Source of the DNA: Thermoleophilia bacterium
Lineage (GTDB): Bacteria; Actinomycetota; Thermoleophilia; Gaiellales; Gaiellaceae
Assembly (NCBI GenBank): GCA_025929895.1
Contig: JAICPI010000016.1
Coordinates: 1 to 45,707 of the forward strand
Length of the DNA: 45,707 nt
Direction of reading: 5' to 3'
This document shows, one piece after another, positions 1,084 through 43,342 of this stretch. Under the pieces are notes generated by a model. That model was given only the letters and a program-made list of their open reading frames with translations, was not told the DNA's origin and ran no database searches. The position numbers and the translations under genes were made by a program. The number at the start of each line of letters is the position of its first letter. Positions within the stretch are counted from its first letter, which is position 1.

Positions 1084-4960
<3,877 letters not shown>

Positions 4961-34083: not shown

Positions 34084-34869
34084 GTGCGGTTGAGGGCTTC
34101 TTCTTGCACAGTCCTTACAGTTGCCGCGCTCGCGGCTTGCGGCGGCGGCGACGGGTCGAGCGCGCCGCCCGCGCCTTCGACGGCTCCCGCGCCGGTGCCG
34201 GCGCCGCCCAGCGCCGCGCCCCGCTGCGATCCCGGCGAGCACGAGCGGCTCGGAACGGCGACCACGTCGTACGCGGCCGCGGCGCGCCGCCCGATCGCGG
34301 TCCACGCCGAGCCCGGAGGCGCCGTCGTCGAGCGGTTCGGCCGAATCAACCCGAACGGTGTCACCACGGTCTTCGGCGTCCTCGGCCGGCGGGTGGGCGA
34401 GGACTGCGGGCCGAGCTGGTACCGCGTGCGGCTGCCGCGTCGCCCGAACGGGCGCGTCGGCTGGGTCCGCGCCGGCGACGTCGCGATCGCGGAGGTGCGG
34501 ACGCGGATCCTCGTCGACCTCTCGGCACGCCGCGTCACCCTCTACCGCGACGGGCGCAAGCTCGTCTCGACGACGGCCGCGATCGGGTCCACGGCGACGC
34601 CGACGCCGACCGGCTCGTACTACGTCGACCAGCGGCTGCTCTCGGGAGACGCCGGTGGGCCTTTCGGGCCGGGCGCGGTGGGGATCGCCGCGTACTCCGA
34701 GGTGCTGACCGGGTGGACGCAGGGCGGCCCGATCGCCATCCACGGCACGAACCGCCCCGACCTGATCGGCCAGGCCGTCTCGAACGGCTGCATCCGCGTA
34801 CGCAACGACGTTCTGCGGCGGATCTTCGCCGCGACGCCCGAGGGGACGCCCGTCGAGATTCAGTCGTAG
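34084..34869 (+). CDS. L,D-transpeptidase (YkuD), lipoprotein
   Basis: A 261-residue lipoprotein. Signal with lipobox LAAC, lipidated cysteine C19, then a Pro/Ala linker (25-46). An SH3-like region is plausible at about 55-135 (TSYAAAARRPIAVHAEPGGAVV through WVRAGDVA). The YkuD domain (about 138-260) has the catalytic motif H220-G-T and S233-N-G-C236-I-R238. It forms or remodels 3-3 crosslinks in peptidoglycan or attaches proteins to it; a second cysteine pair at C48 and C108 may form a disulfide. GTG start at 34084. Tail to tail with the metallophosphoesterase, 10-bp overlap. Confidence 0.9.
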   Translation: MRLRASSCTVLTVAALAACGGGDGSSAPPAPSTAPAPVPAPPSAAPRCDPGEHERLGTATTSYAAAARRPIAVHAEPGGAVVERFGRINPNGVTTVFGVLGRRVGEDCGPSWYRVRLPRRPNGRVGWVRAGDVAIAEVRTRILVDLSARRVTLYRDGRKLVSTTAAIGSTATPTPTGSYYVDQRLLSGDAGGPFGPGAVGIAAYSEVLTGWTQGGPIAIHGTNRPDLIGQAVSNGCIRVRNDVLRRIFAATPEGTPVEIQS

Positions 34870-36626
34870 GGATTGGCAACGAGGAGCTCGACGTTGCGGC
34901 TCGTCGCGAGCCCGCGGCGCCCGGTCCCGCCCTCGTCGTCCGGGTCGTTGTAGGCGAGCTCCCGCGCCACCGACGCGAACCACTCGACCTCGCGCGGGCT
35001 CAAGAGCGTGCCGCGACGCGGGGGGCGAGGGCCAGGGCGCGCGGGAGCGCCGTGGTCGAGGATCGTGCCGAAGATCGAGAGCGTCCCGTCGGCGTTGTCG
35101 ACGAGATCGACCAGGCGGGCCTGCTGCGGCCAGTCGGTGTGGGCGGAGGTCACGAGCTCCCAGAAACCGCTGCCGTCCGGGAGCAGGAACGGGGCCACGC
35201 GGTTGCGATGCTCGTGGCCGACGACGAGCGCGAGGACGCCCCGATGCCGCTGCAGCAGGCAGCCGACGGGCTCGGGCGTCGAGTCGCAGGCGCCGGTGCC
35301 GAGGTGGGCTCCCGACGCGGCCTGCGTCATCGTCTCGAGCGAGTGGTGCGCGAAGACGACGACGAACTCGCGACGGCCCTCGGCGGCACCGAGCTCGGCG
35401 TCGAGCCAGAGGAACTGCGTCCGGTCGAGGTTGCCGCGGTCGCCGCTGTCGGCGACGGTGTCGAGCACGACGAACCGGAGACCCGGCTTCGGCGAGAAGG
35501 CGTAGTACCCGATTCCGCGCGGTGCGTCGGCGGCGGCGTACCCGTGCCCGACCGGCGAGCCGCGCGTGCGGAAGTGCTCCTGGAGGTACTCCGCCGGTGC
35601 GAGCAGCTTGCGGCGCGCGTCGCGGAGGACGGGCTTCCAGCGGCCGCGGGTGATCTGCGGCCCGAAGACCGTCTCGACGAGGTCGCGCGCGAGGATCTGC
35701 GCGATCCGCGACCGCTCCTCCGAGGTCAGGCCGCCGGCGACGAGCCCGCGAACCTCGTCGAGGCCGCGCTGCGAGAGCCGCGTCGGCTTGACGCAGCCCA
35801 CCGCGGCGAGGCCGAACAGCTCGTTGTTCGGGACGTTGCCCTGCACGAGCCCGTCGTGGTTGCCGAAGACGGAGTACCACGGCAGCCCGAGGCCGGTCGC
35901 GCGGAAAGGCCGGTTCATCAGCTCGTACAGGCCGGGGTAGTCGCGCACCACGTTCCTGCGGCCCGTGCGCCGGCTGTTGGCCCTGCCGTTCGGCGAGTAG
36001 CCCGGACCGTCGGTGCCGCGGCTGCTCCGGTCAGGGTCGTAGTAGGCGCCGTCGCCCTTGACGCCCTGGTACAGCCGGTTGCGCGCCGGCACGCGGCACG
36101 TGCCGGGGTCGGAGCCCGAGTTCGGGTTCACGACGACGCCGCCGTCGAGCAGGTCGATGTACCAGCGCGTCTCGTTCAGCTGCGTGTTGTCGACGTTGTC
36201 GCCCGTCACGACGACGAGCTCGGGCCTGCGTCCGTCGACCGGGCTGCGCACGCGGCGGACCTGCTGCACGGACTCCTCGACCACGAAGGCGAGCAGTCCT
36301 TCCTGCGGTCGGTAGGCGGCGTCGAGCGACCCGCCGTAGCGGTCGACGAGCTCGACGCGCGCGGGCGACTCCTCGTCGACGAGCTGGAAGTCGGTCAGCT
36401 GGACGAACGTCGCGAGCACGCGGCGGCGCGCGGCTCGTCCCACCTGCGCCTTGGCCACGGGCTCGAGCACCGAGCGACGCTCGCGCGGCCCCGCCTCCAG
36501 CCGTCCGTCGCCGTTCCGGTCGACGATCGTGCCGCCGAGTGTCGTCGCCGGGGGCGGCGTGGCTCCCGCGGCGAGCGCGCCGAACGCGGCGATCGCGACG
36601 GCGGCGATCAGTGTGCGTGAGCGCAC
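34860..36626 (-). CDS. secreted metallophosphoesterase (calcineurin-like)
   Basis: A 588-residue exported enzyme from GTG 36626. Signal peptide about 1-25 (TLIAAVAIAAFGALAAGA). A calcium-loop-like motif, DRNGDGRLEAG, is at 36-46. The metallophosphatase core has the first metal motif as TDFQ (78-81; usually DxH), GDNVDN (142-147), GNHDG (255-259), VFAHHSLE and VVGHEHRN. The first motif is thus altered: His replaced by Gln. An N-terminal extension of about 70 residues and a central insert (about 165-230) resemble the actinobacterial PPA1498 group; I recall this only from memory. It could act on phosphodiesters or phosphate monoesters outside the cell. TACCCT ends 7 nt upstream. Confidence 0.82.
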   Translation of the reverse strand: MRSRTLIAAVAIAAFGALAAGATPPPATTLGGTIVDRNGDGRLEAGPRERRSVLEPVAKAQVGRAARRRVLATFVQLTDFQLVDEESPARVELVDRYGGSLDAAYRPQEGLLAFVVEESVQQVRRVRSPVDGRRPELVVVTGDNVDNTQLNETRWYIDLLDGGVVVNPNSGSDPGTCRVPARNRLYQGVKGDGAYYDPDRSSRGTDGPGYSPNGRANSRRTGRRNVVRDYPGLYELMNRPFRATGLGLPWYSVFGNHDGLVQGNVPNNELFGLAAVGCVKPTRLSQRGLDEVRGLVAGGLTSEERSRIAQILARDLVETVFGPQITRGRWKPVLRDARRKLLAPAEYLQEHFRTRGSPVGHGYAAADAPRGIGYYAFSPKPGLRFVVLDTVADSGDRGNLDRTQFLWLDAELGAAEGRREFVVVFAHHSLETMTQAASGAHLGTGACDSTPEPVGCLLQRHRGVLALVVGHEHRNRVAPFLLPDGSGFWELVTSAHTDWPQQARLVDLVDNADGTLSIFGTILDHGAPARPGPRPPRRGTLLSPREVEWFASVARELAYNDPDDEGGTGRRGLATSRNVELLVANPYD

Positions 36627-36671: not shown

Positions 36672-36965
36672 ATGGCGCAACGTGGACAGAAGGACTTGAT
36701 CGCGAGACTGGCGGACGCGGGCGAGGAAGCGCTCTCCCGGCTCGCCTCCTCGCCGGGGATGGACCGCGTCACGGGCGTGATGACGAACATGCGCGACCAG
36801 GTCGACGCGCTCGCGGGCCGGGTGCGCGGCCTCGAGGATCTGGAGAAGCGGCTCGCCGCGCTCGAGCGCAAGGTCGACCGGCTCTCGACGCCGAGCGCGG
36901 GTACTTCGCGCAAGACATCGGCGACGTCGCGGAAGAAGACGGCGACTACGCGGAAGAAGACCTAG
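36672..36965 (+). CDS. 97-residue coiled-coil protein with Lys/Thr tail
   Basis: ATG 36672 follows AAAGGAGCTTCG, a good ribosome site. Residues about 1-70 form an amphipathic helix region with heptads (VDALAGRVRGLEDLEKRLAALERKVDRL), and residues about 72-97 are a Ser/Thr/Lys tail with three KT repeats (SRKTSATSRKKTATTRKKT). This resembles small phasin-like or nucleoid-associated actinobacterial proteins; the resemblance is only in composition. No signal peptide. It converges on the lipid kinase with a 20-bp overlap. Function unknown. Confidence 0.7.
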   Translation: MAQRGQKDLIARLADAGEEALSRLASSPGMDRVTGVMTNMRDQVDALAGRVRGLEDLEKRLAALERKVDRLSTPSAGTSRKTSATSRKKTATTRKKT

Positions 36966-37863
36966 GGACCCGCACGCGCAACGCCAGCGGCACGACCTCG
37001 AAGCTCGCGGGTGTCGTGCCGGGCTGCTCGCCGTCGAGCTCGACGGGGAGCGGCTCGTCCGCGTCGATCTCGACCCGCGAGCCGCGCAGCTGCTCGATCT
37101 TCGGGTGCGAGAGGTGCGTTCCCCGGTAGATCTTCCCGACGTTCAGGACGAAGTCGCGCTTCGTCAGGTCGCCGAAGACGAGCACGTCGAAGAGCCCGTC
37201 GTCGGCGCTCGCCTCGGGCGCGAGCCACATCCCGCCGCCGTGGTACTGCCCGTTCGCGACGACCGTGTTGTTGATCTTCCCGCGACGCTCCTCCCCGTCC
37301 ACGCGCACGCGCATCTCCGCGTTCCGCCAGGAGAAGAACACCTCCACGAGCGCGGTGAAGAAGCTCGCCTTGCCGCCGAACGCCTTCGACTTCGCGTTCG
37401 CCCGCCGCGCGACGGCCGCGCTCATGCCCGCGCTCGCGATGTTCGCGAAGTGCTCGGTCGCCTCGGCGCCCGACCAGGAGCGGTACGTCACCTTGCCGAG
37501 GTCGAACGCGCGCGCCTCGCCCTCGACGGCGACTCGCGCCGCGTCGGCGACCTTGGTCGGGATCCCGTGCGTGCGCGGGAAGTCCATCCCCGTGCCTCGC
37601 ATCATCAGCGCGAGCTCGACGTCGCGTCCGACGACGCCGTTGACGACCTCGTGCAGGGCGCCGTCGCCGCCCACGACGACGAGCAGCCTCGCACCCTCGT
37701 CGACCGCCCGCGCCGCGAGCTCGGTCAGGTGGCGGGGCGCCTCGGAGAAGAGCGCGTCTCCTGTCAGCCCCTGAGCGGCGGCGGCGTGCGCGATCTGCGG
37801 CCAGCGTTTCCCCGTCGACCCGTTCGCCGACGCCGGGTTGACGAGGAAGACCGTGTCGGTCAG
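36946..37863 (-). CDS. diacylglycerol kinase family lipid kinase, apparent CTG start
   Basis: A 305-residue lipid kinase of the DAGK catalytic family. LVNPASANGSTG (7-18) is the family's entry, GGDGALHEVVNG (65-76) binds nucleotide, and GTGMDF (90-95) replaces the usual GTxNDF. The C-terminal beta domain contains GGGMWLAPEASADDGLFDVLVFG. It phosphorylates diacylglycerol or a related lipid. No ATG, GTG or TTG exists before LVNPAS; CTG at 37863 overlaps the phosphorylase stop as CTGA, the same arrangement as at 8279. It converges on the 97-residue gene with a 20-bp overlap. Confidence 0.86.
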   Translation of the reverse strand: MTDTVFLVNPASANGSTGKRWPQIAHAAAAQGLTGDALFSEAPRHLTELAARAVDEGARLLVVVGGDGALHEVVNGVVGRDVELALMMRGTGMDFPRTHGIPTKVADAARVAVEGEARAFDLGKVTYRSWSGAEATEHFANIASAGMSAAVARRANAKSKAFGGKASFFTALVEVFFSWRNAEMRVRVDGEERRGKINNTVVANGQYHGGGMWLAPEASADDGLFDVLVFGDLTKRDFVLNVGKIYRGTHLSHPKIEQLRGSRVEIDADEPLPVELDGEQPGTTPASFEVVPLALRVRVPRSSSA

Positions 37864-39397: not shown

Positions 39398-40000
39398 TTG
39401 CTCGGGCTCGTGGAGATCATGCGGGCGCTGGACCAGGCGGCGTCCGCGTTCGGGGAGAGCGTGCGCTGGAGCCCGGCGACCTTCGTGCTCCTGCTCGCCT
39501 CGGCGTGGTGGGTCAAGTGGCCCCTGTTCGCGGCGATCGCGGCCGCGGGCGACTGCCGGAGGCGCCGCATGCCGCGCGCGACGATCGCCGCGCTCGGCGC
39601 CGTGGCCGCCGCGGGGGCCCTCGTGACGATCTTCAAGGAGCTCTTCGACCGCGCGCGCCCACCGGTCGCCGGCATCGACGCGGTCGGTGTCATCCCCGAC
39701 TCGGCGTCGTTCCCGTCGGGGCACTCCGCGACCGCGTTCGCGGCGGCCGTCGCCGTCGGGCTCTTCTACCCGAAGCTCAGGCGGCCGTTGCTCGCGCTGG
39801 CTGCGCTCGTGGCGCTGTCGCGCGTGTACCTGGGAGTCCACTACGCCAGCGACGTGCTGGCCGGAAGCCTCCTCGGAGTGCTGCTCGGGCTCGTGTCCGT
39901 GTGGGCCGTTCGAGCGGTCGCACCACTGCCCACAGCACCTTCGCCGAGTCTCGTCCGGCTCGGAACGAGCTCCGCTCCGCCCCGTAGATCGCCGGGATAG
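39398..40000 (+). CDS. PAP2-family membrane phosphatase
   Basis: A 200-residue integral membrane phosphatase of the type-2 phosphatidic-acid phosphatase family, such as those acting on undecaprenyl pyrophosphate, phosphatidic acid or phosphatidylglycerol phosphate. All three motifs are intact: K80-x6-R87-P88 (KELFDRARP), PSGHS at 106-110, and SR at 141-142 with H148 and D152 (SRVYLGVHYASD). Hydrophobic segments at about 28-52, 62-80, 108-124, 130-146 and 152-174. It starts at TTG 39398 or ATG 39419. The last 28 residues (APLPTAPSPSLVRLG) are non-conserved and run antisense to the GT2 domain of the fusion gene; total overlap is 224 bp. Confidence 0.87.
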   Translation: MLGLVEIMRALDQAASAFGESVRWSPATFVLLLASAWWVKWPLFAAIAAAGDCRRRRMPRATIAALGAVAAAGALVTIFKELFDRARPPVAGIDAVGVIPDSASFPSGHSATAFAAAVAVGLFYPKLRRPLLALAALVALSRVYLGVHYASDVLAGSLLGVLLGLVSVWAVRAVAPLPTAPSPSLVRLGTSSAPPRRSPG

Positions 40001-42404
40001 GGACCCACGCCACCGGCAGGCCGTCGCGCAGGACGCGGCGGAGGTGGATCGTCTCCGACTCGTAGCCGCCGTCCGGGAACGTCGCCAGCACGCGGCCGCG
40101 CAGCAGGCGCATCCCGTTCTGCGTGTCGCGCACCTCGCGCCCCGTCGTCGCCTGGAAGAGCCTGCGCGTCGTGCGGTTCGCGATCCGGCGCTTCAGCGGC
40201 ATCCGCGCGAGGTCGTCGAAGCGGTCGCCGACCACGAGCTCGGCGTCGCGCGCCGCCGCGAGGAAGGAGGGGATCGCGTCGGCGGGGTGCTGGCCGTCGG
40301 CGTCGATCACGAGGACGGTGTCGGCGCCCATCGTGCGCGCGATCCCGAAGCGGACGGCCGAGCCCTTGCCCCGTCGCTCGGGCAGGCGGACGAGCTCGAC
40401 CCGCGGCCGGTCGGCGATCGCGTCGAGCGTGCGCGCGACCTCCTCGCTCGAGCCGTCGTCGACGAGCACGAGGCGGTCGACGTGCGCGAGCACGCTTTTC
40501 ACGAGCGCCTCGTCGGGCACGTCGTCGTGCGAAGGCATCACGGCGACGACGGTCGCGTCGTCGGCGAGGGGCTGCGCGTCGGAGACGACGGGCCGGCGCC
40601 GCTCGAACGCCAGCGCGACGAGGAGGGCGCTCGCGGTGCCGAGCGCGGTGCCCGCGACGACGTCGAAGGGGAAGTGCGCGCCGAAGAACACGCGCGTGAA
40701 CGCGACTGCGGCGACGTAGGCCCAGAGCGCGGAGCGGAGGCGGGGGAAGCGGAGCGCGACCGCGACGGCGAGCGCGGCGGTGATCGCCATGTGCCCGCTC
40801 GGGAACGAGTTCAGGTGCGCCCAGGAGTGCCCGTTCAGGCTCGGGTCGGCGACGACCTCCTCCGGGCGCGGCCGGTCGTAGACCGCGTAGACCGCCTCGA
40901 GCAGGCCCCACGCGAGGAGCGCCGAGCCGAGCACGCGGGCGAAGGTCGCCGGCACCGAGCGCAGGCTCGTGACCGCGGCGGCGACGAGTCCGACCACGAT
41001 CAGCACGACGTAGTTGCGCGTGTGCGGGTCGAGGATCGTCCAGAAGAGCTCCGGGCCCGGGCCCAGCCCGTTGATCGCGCCGTACAGCCACTCGTCGAAG
41101 CGGTGCGCCTCGGTCTGCGCGACGAGCAGCCCGAGCACCGGCACCACGGCGAGCAGGCCGAGCGCGAGCCGGAGCCGGCTCTTGAAGCGGGGGACGCCGA
41201 CGAGGGGGACGAGCGCGGTCAGGGTTGCGATGCCTCCGAGGAAGAAGAGCGAGCGGTAGCTGCCGGTAGCTTGAACGGTGAAGCCCGCCGCGGGAAGGGC
41301 GATCGTGGACGAGATCGCGCGGACCGAGAAGTAGAGGGCGGTGTAGGCGCCCGCCTCGCGCTCGGGGATCAACGTGGAGAAGAGCGGGAAGCCGAGCGTG
41401 GACACGAGCCCGAAGCCGGCCGCGCCGAGGACGAGCGCACCGCCGACGGGGACGAGGCTCGTCGAGGCGCCCACGCCGAGGAAGCCGCCGCCGAGCAGGA
41501 CGATCCCGGCGAGCAGGAGCGGGCGGTGGAGCGCCGGGTTCTTGACGCGGCCGGCGAGGACGATCCCCATCCCGGTCGCGAGCCCGAAGCCCGCGAGCCA
41601 GAGCGAGGCGACGCCGGCGGCGAGCCCGAGCTCCTCCTCCGCGTAGAGGAGGAAGAAGGCGGGGAGCGCGGCGTAGCCGAGCACCCAGAGGATCTGCGCG
41701 AGCAGGAAGCCGCGGACGCCGGGGCGGGTCGCGGCGCGGAGGTAGTAGCCCGTCGGATGTCCCGGCGCGGCGGTCGCGGCGGGCGCGACGGCGCCGGACT
41801 CCGTCACGCGCTTGATCGTCGGGAGCGCGAGCAGCGGGACGAGCACCGCGGTCAGCGCGAACGGCGCCCAGATCGCGATCCCCGTGAGCGCGCCGCCGAC
41901 CACGAGGCCGAGGAGGCCCCCGACGAGCATCGCGAGCTCCTGCGCGCTCGTCGCCTTGGGGCGTCCAGAGGCATCGAACGTCTCCGGGATCAGCGCGCGG
42001 TGCGCCGTCGTGACGGCGTTGAGGCCGGTGTAGACGACGGCGGCGAGGAGGGCGAGCACGAGGTACGAGCTCGACGCGCCGAGCGCCATCGCGGCGAGGC
42101 CGCCGGCCGTGACGGCGCTGCCGCCGACGATGAACGGCATCCGGCGGCCGCGGCCGCTGCGCGCGAGCCGGTCGCTCCAGATCCCGACGACGAGCGGCAC
42201 GGCCATTCCGGCGGCGGCGTTGACGAGCATGACCATCCCGATCAGGCCGGGTGCGTCGTCGATACGCTCGAGCAGGAGCGGCAGGTACGTCGTGGTGACG
42301 GCGCGGCCGAGCCCGGCGGCGAGCGCGGCGGCGGCGAAGGCGACGACGTAGGGGAGCCGGAGGAACGGGATCCCGGCGGGGCGGGGAAGCGCGATGCTGG
42401 TCAT
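39777..42404 (-). CDS. three-domain fusion: MFS transporter, PAP2 phosphatase, GT2 glycosyltransferase
   Basis: An 875-residue protein. Residues 1-405 form an MFS carrier of about 12 transmembrane segments, with the loop motif GIWSDRLARSGRGRRMPF (74-91), like the SLC45/GPH sugar-cation group. Residues about 430-600 are a PAP2-like membrane domain: PSGHM (535-539), and TR (570-571), H577, D581; the Lys of motif 1 is replaced by Tyr506 before RPRP. Residues about 617-830 are a GT2 domain of dolichyl-phosphate-sugar-synthase type: VDDGSS (648-653), IDADGQHP (700-707), VVGDRFDD (724-731) and DTQNGMRLL (760-768). The tail (831-875) is basic and antisense to PAP2. ATG 42404 overlaps the lipid kinase stop (ATGA). 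No frameshift is visible. Function is inferred only. Confidence 0.85.
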   Translation of the reverse strand: MTSIALPRPAGIPFLRLPYVVAFAAAALAAGLGRAVTTTYLPLLLERIDDAPGLIGMVMLVNAAAGMAVPLVVGIWSDRLARSGRGRRMPFIVGGSAVTAGGLAAMALGASSSYLVLALLAAVVYTGLNAVTTAHRALIPETFDASGRPKATSAQELAMLVGGLLGLVVGGALTGIAIWAPFALTAVLVPLLALPTIKRVTESGAVAPAATAAPGHPTGYYLRAATRPGVRGFLLAQILWVLGYAALPAFFLLYAEEELGLAAGVASLWLAGFGLATGMGIVLAGRVKNPALHRPLLLAGIVLLGGGFLGVGASTSLVPVGGALVLGAAGFGLVSTLGFPLFSTLIPEREAGAYTALYFSVRAISSTIALPAAGFTVQATGSYRSLFFLGGIATLTALVPLVGVPRFKSRLRLALGLLAVVPVLGLLVAQTEAHRFDEWLYGAINGLGPGPELFWTILDPHTRNYVVLIVVGLVAAAVTSLRSVPATFARVLGSALLAWGLLEAVYAVYDRPRPEEVVADPSLNGHSWAHLNSFPSGHMAITAALAVAVALRFPRLRSALWAYVAAVAFTRVFFGAHFPFDVVAGTALGTASALLVALAFERRRPVVSDAQPLADDATVVAVMPSHDDVPDEALVKSVLAHVDRLVLVDDGSSEEVARTLDAIADRPRVELVRLPERRGKGSAVRFGIARTMGADTVLVIDADGQHPADAIPSFLAAARDAELVVGDRFDDLARMPLKRRIANRTTRRLFQATTGREVRDTQNGMRLLRGRVLATFPDGGYESETIHLRRVLRDGLPVAWVPIPAIYGAERSSFRAGRDSAKVLWAVVRPLERPTRTRARAALRGGFRPARRWRSGLPGTRATAPRAQPARATAA

Positions 42405-43342
42405 GCCGCCGCTCCGACGACGTCGAGCGCGTGGGGGACGACGGTCAGCTCGACCGTGTCCCCGAAGGTGGTGGTGTCGGCGATGATCGGGGAGCGCCCG
42501 CGCGTCGCGATCCGGACGGTGCGGACGCGGGTGTGCGTGACGCCCGGGCGGCCGAGGTGCGTGCCGCGCCGCAGGCGCGGGATCATCGAGAGCAGCGCGC
42601 CGCGGCCGGCGTCGATCGTGACCACGTCGAGGAGCCCGTCGCCGGGGTCGGCCGGGGCGACGCGGAGGCCCGGCCCGAAGAGCGGCATGTTCGCGACGAA
42701 GAGCTGGCCGATCCGGCCGAGGCGGCAGGAGCCGTCGAGCGAGAGGGCGGCGGTGAAGGGCTCGAAGCGGGCGACGGCGGCGAGGCCCGCGCGGAGGGCG
42801 GCTCGGGTGTCCGTGGAGTTGACGCCGGTGTAGCGGGAGCGGGCGATCGCGTGGAAGCCGGCGCTGACGCCCTCGACGGCGAGGTAGCGGCTCGAGCCGT
42901 CGCTCACGGCGATCGCGTCGAGCGGGCGGGTCTCGCCCTCGACGGCGAGGCGGGCGGCGGCGGCGAAGTCGGTGGGGATCCCGAGGCTGCGCGCGACGTT
43001 GTTCGCGCCTCCGGCGGGAATCAGGGCGAGCTCGGCGCGGAACTCGGAGTTGGCGGCGGCGTGCAGCGACCCGTCGCCCCCGAGCAGCACGACGCGCCGC
43101 TCAGCCGTGGCGAGTGCGTCGTCGAGCTCTTCGAGGGACGTCGTCAGGCGGGTCTCGACGCGCGCTCCGATCGTGCGGAGCAGCTGCGCCGAGTCTGCGA
43201 AGAGGGAGGGCCGGCGCGTCAATCCACTCGCGTTCCCGTTCGCGACCAGGAGGAGGTGGGGCGACAGCGAGCGGAGACGCGCCGGGCGGGGAGCCGCAAC
43301 GGGGCGGGGGAGGGAGATGGGAAGCGCATGCGTTGCGGTCAT
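42401..43342 (-). CDS. diacylglycerol kinase family lipid kinase, second copy
   Basis: A 313-residue lipid kinase related to, but distinct from, the one at 36946. Basic Pro/Arg N-terminus (1-25), then LLLVANGNASG (30-40), the nucleotide motif GGDGSLHAAAN (88-98) and PAGGANNVARSLG (109-121), where GGANNVA stands for the usual GTANDFA. The C-terminal beta domain includes QLFVANMPLFGPGLRVAPADPGDGLLDVVTI. The stop overlaps the start of the MFS-PAP2-GT2 gene by 4 bp (ATGA), so the two are translationally coupled. Together they suggest a pathway that makes or turns over phosphorylated lipid carriers. A GGATCC lies just upstream of the ATG 43342 as a weak ribosome site. Confidence 0.88.
   Translation of the reverse strand: MTATHALPISLPRPVAAPRPARLRSLSPHLLLVANGNASGLTRRPSLFADSAQLLRTIGARVETRLTTSLEELDDALATAERRVVLLGGDGSLHAAANSEFRAELALIPAGGANNVARSLGIPTDFAAAARLAVEGETRPLDAIAVSDGSSRYLAVEGVSAGFHAIARSRYTGVNSTDTRAALRAGLAAVARFEPFTAALSLDGSCRLGRIGQLFVANMPLFGPGLRVAPADPGDGLLDVVTIDAGRGALLSMIPRLRRGTHLGRPGVTHTRVRTVRIATRGRSPIIADTTTFGDTVELTVVPHALDVVGAAA

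What the first reader, a model, noticed from the sequence alone, without database searches (positions are those of the whole stretch)
39777..43342. MFS-PAP2-GT2 three-domain fusion coupled to a lipid kinase
One 875-residue protein joins an MFS carrier with an SLC45-like loop, a PAP2-type phosphatase domain and a GT2 domain of polyprenyl-phosphate-sugar-synthase type. It is translated through an ATGA overlap from a DAGK-family lipid kinase. A second PAP2 and another DAGK-family kinase sit within 5 kb. The combination suggests synthesis, flipping or recycling of a phospholipid- or polyprenyl-linked sugar in one polypeptide. I know of PAP2-lipid-kinase combinations, but not of this order.
Basis: partly seen in the sequence, partly recalled or inferred. 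Interest (0 to 1): 0.78.

Follow-up and report, generated by a model that had tools for sequence, protein, structure and literature searches.

The report
Transporter-phosphatase-glycosyltransferase fusion with lipid kinase
One bacterial membrane protein joins a transporter, a lipid-phosphate-phosphatase-like domain and a sugar transferase next to a lipid kinase gene; relatives keep the same parts but join them in different orders, which points to a little-known device for putting sugars on a lipid carrier and moving it across the membrane.

Summary
Confirmed: window 39777-42404(-) is one open frame (875 aa) with MFS (13-402), PAP2 (410-601) and GT2 (618-830) domains. A DAGK/YegS-family kinase (42401-43342) is coupled to it through an ATGA overlap. 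The fusion is not a sequencing accident: a second species of the genus keeps the PAP2-GT2 join. Relatives change the reading. An MFS-PAP2 fusion beside the kinase is the older core, found patchily in class Thermoleophilia and not outside it in a phylum sample. GT2 is a separate neighbour in five loci. It was joined at the C-terminus in the window genus and, separately, inside the protein (MFS-GT2-PAP2) in four Solirubrobacter-type genomes. Module GT2s form one clade (97/98), so the separate homologues support a functional link. Predicted topology puts PAP2 motifs outside and GT2 in the cytoplasm in both orders. Cautions: the fused PAP2 lacks the motif-1 lysine in every relative, and the kinase lacks the usual GGDGxxxE glutamate. 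Best mechanism (inferred): GT2 loads a sugar on a lipid phosphate, MFS flips it, PAP2 acts on the outer face, the kinase restores lipid phosphate. Substrate unknown. The second DAGK was not seen beside the module in relatives; the second PAP2 recurs.

The parts
39777..42404 (-). 875-aa MFS-PAP2-GT2 fusion protein
   Evidence: single ORF; Pfam; AlphaFold2 model pLDDT 84.5, pTM 0.67 with three folded regions
41199..42368 (-). MFS domain, residues 13-402; loop GIWSDR..GRRMPF at 74-91; in relatives R34, H135, R136, E156 and R362 are invariant
   Evidence: one clade with 13 relatives, 100/100
40602..41177 (-). PAP2 domain, residues 410-601; motif 2 SFPSGH 533-538, motif 3 TRVFFGAHFPFD 570-581; motif-1 lysine replaced by Tyr (YAVYDRPRP)
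39915..40553 (-). GT2 domain, residues 618-830; VDDGS, DADGQH (701-706), DTQNGMR (760-766)
39777..39878 (-). C-terminal tail, residues 843-875, probably passenger sequence antisense to the second PAP2 gene
   Evidence: pLDDT under 50; GC3 0.47 and position-2 changes
42401..43342 (-). DAGK/YegS-family lipid kinase gene, ATGA overlap with the fusion; GGDGSLHA in place of GGDGTxxE
   Evidence: adjacent in 15 of 16 module loci where the flank can be seen
39398..40000 (+). second PAP2 phosphatase gene with canonical motif 1 (KELFDRARP), convergent, 224-nt antisense overlap with the fusion
   Evidence: same overlap in the sister species, L027 1103-1326; PAP2 of this canonical type recurs beside the module in six other loci
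36949..37860 (-). second DAGK-family gene (canonical GGDGALHEVVN and DGE); probably not part of the module
   Evidence: not found beside the module in relatives

Best explanation
The locus is a lipid-linked-sugar module: DAGK-family kinase + MFS carrier + PAP2 + DPMS/ArnC-type GT2, with GT2 fused on in this genus. Shown by sequence: the parts, their joins, their conserved association, and a predicted topology with GT2 and kinase inside and the PAP2 motifs outside. Inferred: GT2 puts a sugar from a nucleotide donor on a lipid phosphate (most likely polyprenyl phosphate, otherwise a glycerolipid) in the inner leaflet; the MFS domain moves the product to the outer leaflet, as LtaA does for a glycolipid; the PAP2 domain acts on, or only binds, the phosphate-bearing lipid at the outer face; the kinase refills lipid phosphate from lipid alcohol. 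Fusion keeps the otherwise soluble GT2 at the membrane beside its carrier.
For: Same four parts together in Miltoncostaeaceae, Solirubrobacter-type and window-family genomes. GT2 joined at two different places in one gene family: C-terminal in window and L027; between MFS and PAP2 in L043, L044, L076 and L077. Module GT2s one clade 97/98; fused forms sit beside unfused sisters. Module MFS one clade 100/100. The kinase overlaps or lies within a few bases of the next gene in the loci read base by base. Positive-inside pattern and the AlphaFold model agree with GT2 inside and PAP2 motifs outside in this order; the MFS-GT2-PAP2 order also places GT2 inside. GT2 resembles ArnC, DPMS, GtrB and PpgS. 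Precedent for an MFS glycolipid flippase beside a cytoplasmic GT: LtaA/YpfP (PMC8866510).
Against: No activity, lipid or sugar is known. The fused PAP2 lacks the motif-1 lysine in all relatives and might bind without cutting. The kinase family lacks the GGDGxxxE glutamate. GT2 lacks a membrane anchor of its own, and its tail motif is S-x-F-R. No GT-C or polymer gene was recognised among the window neighbours scanned with Pfam. MFS fold hits are general and led by drug antiporters. Close relatives can carry the MFS alone (L031; L032 is cut by a contig end).
Confidence: 0.5

Rival explanations
1. Glycerolipid version: the kinase and the phosphatases interconvert phosphatidic acid and diacylglycerol, the GT2 makes a glycosyl-diacylglycerol or phosphoglycolipid, and the MFS domain flips this glycolipid like LtaA.
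For: The kinase is nearest to DAG-kinase families; the PAP2 domain matches PgpB and B. subtilis PgpB by profile and fold; LtaA precedent; PhoD-like phosphatases beside the Miltoncostaea-type modules would suit phosphate-dependent remodelling.
Against: The GT2 is nearest to polyprenyl-phosphate sugar synthases, not to known DAG glycosyltransferases; substrate not testable here.
Confidence: 0.25
2. The MFS domain is a soluble-substrate carrier (sugar or drug) that was joined to lipid enzymes for anchoring or regulation; the fused PAP2 and the kinase are catalytically weak or inactive sensors.
For: SLC45-like loop motif; Foldseek top hits are NorA, MdfA and VMAT; missing motif-1 lysine in PAP2 and missing glutamate in the kinase throughout the family.
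Against: Kinase, PAP2 and GT2 travel together with the MFS across families; the catalytic histidines of PAP2, the GGDG of the kinase and the DxD of GT2 are kept.
Confidence: 0.2
3. The order is an accident: stop-codon loss or an assembly error fused neighbouring genes without functional meaning.
For: GT2 is a separate gene in several relatives; the sister MAG has a frameshift inside the MFS part.
Against: The PAP2-GT2 join is open and evolves like coding DNA in two species; a second, different GT2 join exists in four other genomes.
Confidence: 0.05

Closest known systems
LtaA/YpfP (MFS glycolipid flippase and its glycosyltransferase, Staphylococcus aureus; PMC8866510)
   Same: A cytoplasmic glycosyltransferase makes a lipid-linked sugar and an MFS protein moves it outward
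   Different: Separate proteins, different GT, no PAP2 or kinase; the MFS domain here was not shown to be close to LtaA
Three-component glycosylation systems (GtrB/DPMS-type GT2, flippase, GT-C; PMC11127046)
   Same: GT2 of the same structural class as GtrB/ArnC; a putative carrier; lipid-linked donor logic
   Different: The flippase there is SMR- or MATE-type; no GT-C gene recognised here; PAP2 and kinase are extra
PpgS, polyprenyl-phospho-GalNAc synthase (NCBIfam NF058614)
   Same: Best NCBIfam match of the window GT2 (1.1e-12); a GT2 of similar size without a long membrane domain
   Different: 47.9 bits against a cut-off of 370; here fused to PAP2
Bifunctional PAP2/DAGK-family proteins and PAP2-DAGK pairs of actinobacteria (recalled, not tested here)
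   Same: PAP2 and DAGK-family kinase in one gene or operon
   Different: No MFS and no GT2; the kinase here is a separate gene beside the fusion
LplT-acyltransferase fusions (recalled, not tested here)
   Same: An MFS lipid carrier joined to lipid enzymes in one chain
   Different: Different enzymes and lipid (lysophospholipid recycling)

Membership tests
PAP2 lipid-phosphate phosphatase | Motif 1 K-x6-RP | tested here: not met
   RP present, Lys replaced by Tyr/Trp/Gln/Ala in all module PAP2 domains; Lys present in PAP2_B
PAP2 lipid-phosphate phosphatase | Motif 2 PSGH and motif 3 SR-x5-H-x3-D | tested here: met
   SFPSGH and TRVFFGAHFPFD (Ser to Thr) at 533-538 and 570-581
PAP2 lipid-phosphate phosphatase | Six-helix fold | tested here: met
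   5jki (B. subtilis PgpB) TMt 0.71, rmsd 3.6
PAP2 lipid-phosphate phosphatase | Phosphatase activity | not testable with these tools
   needs protein
Polyprenyl-phosphate sugar synthase (DPMS/ArnC/GtrB/PpgS) | GT-A GT2 fold with DxD and D-x-Q-x-G motifs | tested here: met
   ArnC, DPMS and GtrB are top fold hits; DADGQH, DTQNGMR
Polyprenyl-phosphate sugar synthase (DPMS/ArnC/GtrB/PpgS) | Reaches a curated family cut-off | tested here: not met
   47.9 bits vs 370 for PpgS, 45.6 vs 529 for ArnC
Polyprenyl-phosphate sugar synthase (DPMS/ArnC/GtrB/PpgS) | Own membrane anchor (absent in soluble types such as PpgS/DPM1, by recall) | tested here: not met
   No transmembrane segment after residue 601; anchoring would come from PAP2
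DAGK/YegS lipid kinase | DAGK_cat and YegS_C domains with GGDG | tested here: met
   GGDG invariant in 12 sequences
DAGK/YegS lipid kinase | GGDGxxxE glutamate and C-terminal DGE | tested here: not met
   E is A or S in all; DGE is D-[TSAG]-[TEDV]
MFS lipid flippase (LtaA type) | 12-helix MFS fold | tested here: met
   AlphaFold2 model; Foldseek MFS hits
MFS lipid flippase (LtaA type) | Lipid translocation | not testable with these tools
   needs a proteoliposome assay
SLC45 sugar transporters | SDR-x-GRRxPF loop and SLC45 as nearest family | tested here: inconclusive
   Loop motif present; Pfam gives only MFS_1; SLC45A4 is fold rank 27, TMt 0.60
Three-component glycosylation system | GT-C transferase gene beside GT2 and flippase | tested here: inconclusive
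   No GT-C family among the window genes scanned with Pfam; rest of genome not searched

The most novel reading that the evidence does not exclude
A single polypeptide carries out loading, flipping and outer-face processing of a lipid-linked sugar, fed with lipid phosphate by the coupled kinase; evolution joined the loading enzyme to the carrier at least twice in different orders, with a PAP2 subfamily re-shaped (no motif-1 lysine) for a phosphodiester-linked sugar lipid instead of a simple lipid phosphate.
Probability: 0.22. Interest if true: 0.85.

Novelty: new variant of a known kind. Interest (0 to 1): 0.62.

Why it matters
Flippases for polyprenyl-phosphate sugars are often assigned only by genetic context. 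A carrier physically fused to the enzyme that would make its cargo, in two independent arrangements, gives a directly testable pair. It also marks a PAP2 subfamily and a kinase subfamily with altered catalytic motifs, and a conserved module in Thermoleophilia, whose envelope biology is little studied.

Tried and rejected
Frameshift or assembly fusion: rejected by the sister species, the codon-position test and the second, differently ordered fusion. SLC45 membership: loop motif only; not supported as nearest family. Second DAGK (36949-37860) as part of the module: not found beside it in relatives. The window metallophosphoesterase 34863-36626 as a counterpart of the PhoD-like neighbours: different Pfam family. 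Literature on MFS-PAP2 fusions or on such fusions with GT2 or DAGK: nothing found. The genome search with large samples failed three times; smaller samples were used instead. The first attempt at aligning the sister MFS fragment used a wrong frame and was redone.

Full report
WHAT IS THERE. The minus strand 39777-42404 encodes one 875-residue protein. Pfam finds MFS_1, PAP2 and Glycos_transf_2 in that order, each above its cut-off. An AlphaFold2 model from a 27-row alignment has mean pLDDT 84.5 and pTM 0.67: MFS helices 13-402, six PAP2 helices 410-601, a GT-A domain 618-830, and a disordered tail 843-875. A model of the PAP2-GT2 half alone has pLDDT 89.9. The upstream gene 42401-43342 is a DAGK/YegS-family protein whose stop overlaps the ATG of the fusion as ATGA.

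IS THE FUSION REAL. GC at codon position 3 is 0.93-1.0 through residue 825. In the only other sampled species of the genus (G001, locus L027/L037) the PAP2-GT2 join is one open frame (637 aa). Differences between the two species at codon positions 1, 2, 3 are 4, 3, 48 in the MFS C-half, 17, 14, 43 in the PAP2 core, and 22, 16, 33 and 17, 8, 26 in two GT2 blocks. G001 has a frameshift, but inside the MFS part (about L027 3028-3058), not between domains; it may be an assembly error. The final 25-50 residues do not behave as selected protein: GC3 is 0.47 and changes concentrate on position 2. This stretch lies antisense to the second PAP2 gene; the 224-nt overlap is the same length in both species.

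RELATIVES. A protein search of 101 relatives, 149 class members, 198 phylum members and three families, plus a scan of 84,980 species genomes, gave the following loci. (a) DAGK, MFS-PAP2-GT2: window, G001. (b) GT2, DAGK, MFS-PAP2 as three genes in one direction: L028/L040 (G008). (c) DAGK, MFS-PAP2, with a convergent separate GT2: L039 (G132), L041 (G196), L033 (G092; frameshift in MFS). (d) MFS-GT2-PAP2 in one frame with DAGK beside it: L043 (912 aa), L044 (G125, 867 aa); L076 (G467, 889 aa, with the DAGK gene after it); L077/L078 (G448, split over two contigs). (e) DAGK, MFS, GT2 as three genes with ATGA overlaps, and a PAP2 of the same subfamily about 14 kb away: L061/L060 (G159). (f) DAGK, MFS-PAP2 without GT2 in the 8 kb seen: L038 (G147). 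(g) L042 (G388) and L062 (G137) are cut by contig ends. (h) MFS alone: L031 (G028) and L032 (G034, contig edge). Sources. Pfam confirms the MFS-GT2-PAP2 order in L043 and L044. The DAGK gene is adjacent in 15 of 16 loci where the flank can be seen.

HOW IT AROSE. The nine module GT2s tested form one clade against other GT2s of the class (97/98, starred). Window and G001 pair (94/95), with the unfused G008 gene as sister (94/98); L043 and L044 pair (92/88); these inner branches are below the star threshold. The 14 module MFS domains form one clade (100/100), with window+G001 and the Solirubrobacter-type group each starred. So the C-terminal and the internal GT2 joins are most simply separate events, and MFS-PAP2 is older than either. 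Distribution is patchy: 5 of 103 genomes in the window family, 6 of 42 and 4 of 81 in two other families, and no match at 1e-22 outside the class in 198 phylum genomes. A second copy in G008 (L029) groups with the Miltoncostaea-type sequences, which suggests transfer. There the PAP2 part (L030) is fused to a PhoD-like domain, and PhoD-like genes stand beside the module in L033, L038, L039 and L041.

TOPOLOGY. Basic stretches PRFKSR (405-410), RFPRLR (552-557) and ERRRP (from 601) put the PAP2 ends inside and motifs 1-3 outside. GT2 then lies in the cytoplasm, where nucleotide sugars are. In the MFS-GT2-PAP2 order the GT2 sits between the inside ends of MFS and PAP2, again in the cytoplasm. Both orders satisfy the same topology; this is inferred, not measured.

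WHAT EACH PART IS. GT2: nearest solved folds are ArnC, dolichyl-phosphate mannose synthase and GtrB, followed by glucosyl-3-phosphoglycerate synthase; sequence search gives ArnC 8e-9 and DPMS 1e-6; the best NCBIfam model is PpgS, far below its cut-off. PAP2: fold match to B. subtilis PgpB, profile match to LpxE and PgpB. The motif-1 lysine is Tyr, Trp, Gln or Ala in all module members, while the second PAP2 of the window has it. MFS: ordinary 12-helix fold with general hits. Kinase: GGDG kept, the glutamate of GGDGxxxE replaced by Ala or Ser in all 12, C-terminal DGE not kept. A canonical PAP2 like the second PAP2 of the window recurs beside the module in G001, G008, G467, G448, L043 and L044, so it may belong; the second DAGK was not seen beside it elsewhere.

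MECHANISM. Shown: parts, joins, association. From established knowledge: GT2 enzymes of the ArnC/DPMS/GtrB class transfer a sugar to polyprenyl phosphate on the cytoplasmic side; PgpB-type PAP2 enzymes have a periplasm-facing active site (PMC5852022); an MFS protein, LtaA, flips a glycolipid made by YpfP at the inner leaflet (PMC8866510). Inferred: loading by GT2, flipping by MFS, outer-face action or binding by PAP2, supply of lipid phosphate by the kinase. I give this class of mechanism 0.5. A diacylglycerol-based version is the main rival.

LITERATURE. No paper in the held library was found that describes MFS-PAP2 fusions or this set; the library lacks most subscription journals, so this is weak evidence of novelty.

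VERDICT.

Noticed in passing
window 39777-40000; L027 1103-1326: The 3' ends of the fusion gene and the convergent second PAP2 gene overlap antisense by 224 nt, with the same length in two species; the overlap reaches into the last part of the GT2 domain and the last helix of the PAP2.
   Followed up: partly
L030 1-2322 (G008 C115): A PAP2 domain of the same subfamily is fused in frame to a PhoD-like phosphatase, just before a 37-aa GT2 remnant (L030 2391-2501).
   Followed up: partly
L033, L038, L039, L041: A PhoD-like phosphatase, with an N-terminal membrane part where complete, stands next to GT2 or MFS-PAP2 in these Miltoncostaea-type modules.
   Followed up: partly
L033 about 8160 and L027 about 3028-3058: The MFS part is frameshifted in two genomes, one of them a single-contig assembly; sequencing error or decay not distinguished.
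   Followed up: no
L029 5500-7676: A second DAGK-MFS copy in G008 groups with Miltoncostaea-type sequences, which suggests horizontal transfer.
   Followed up: partly
L076 2798-6372: In G467 the kinase gene lies after the MFS-GT2-PAP2 gene instead of before it.
   Followed up: no
window 42401-43342 and relatives: The module kinase subfamily has lost the GGDGxxxE glutamate and most of the DGE motif, while the neighbouring kinase at 36949-37860 keeps both.
   Followed up: partly
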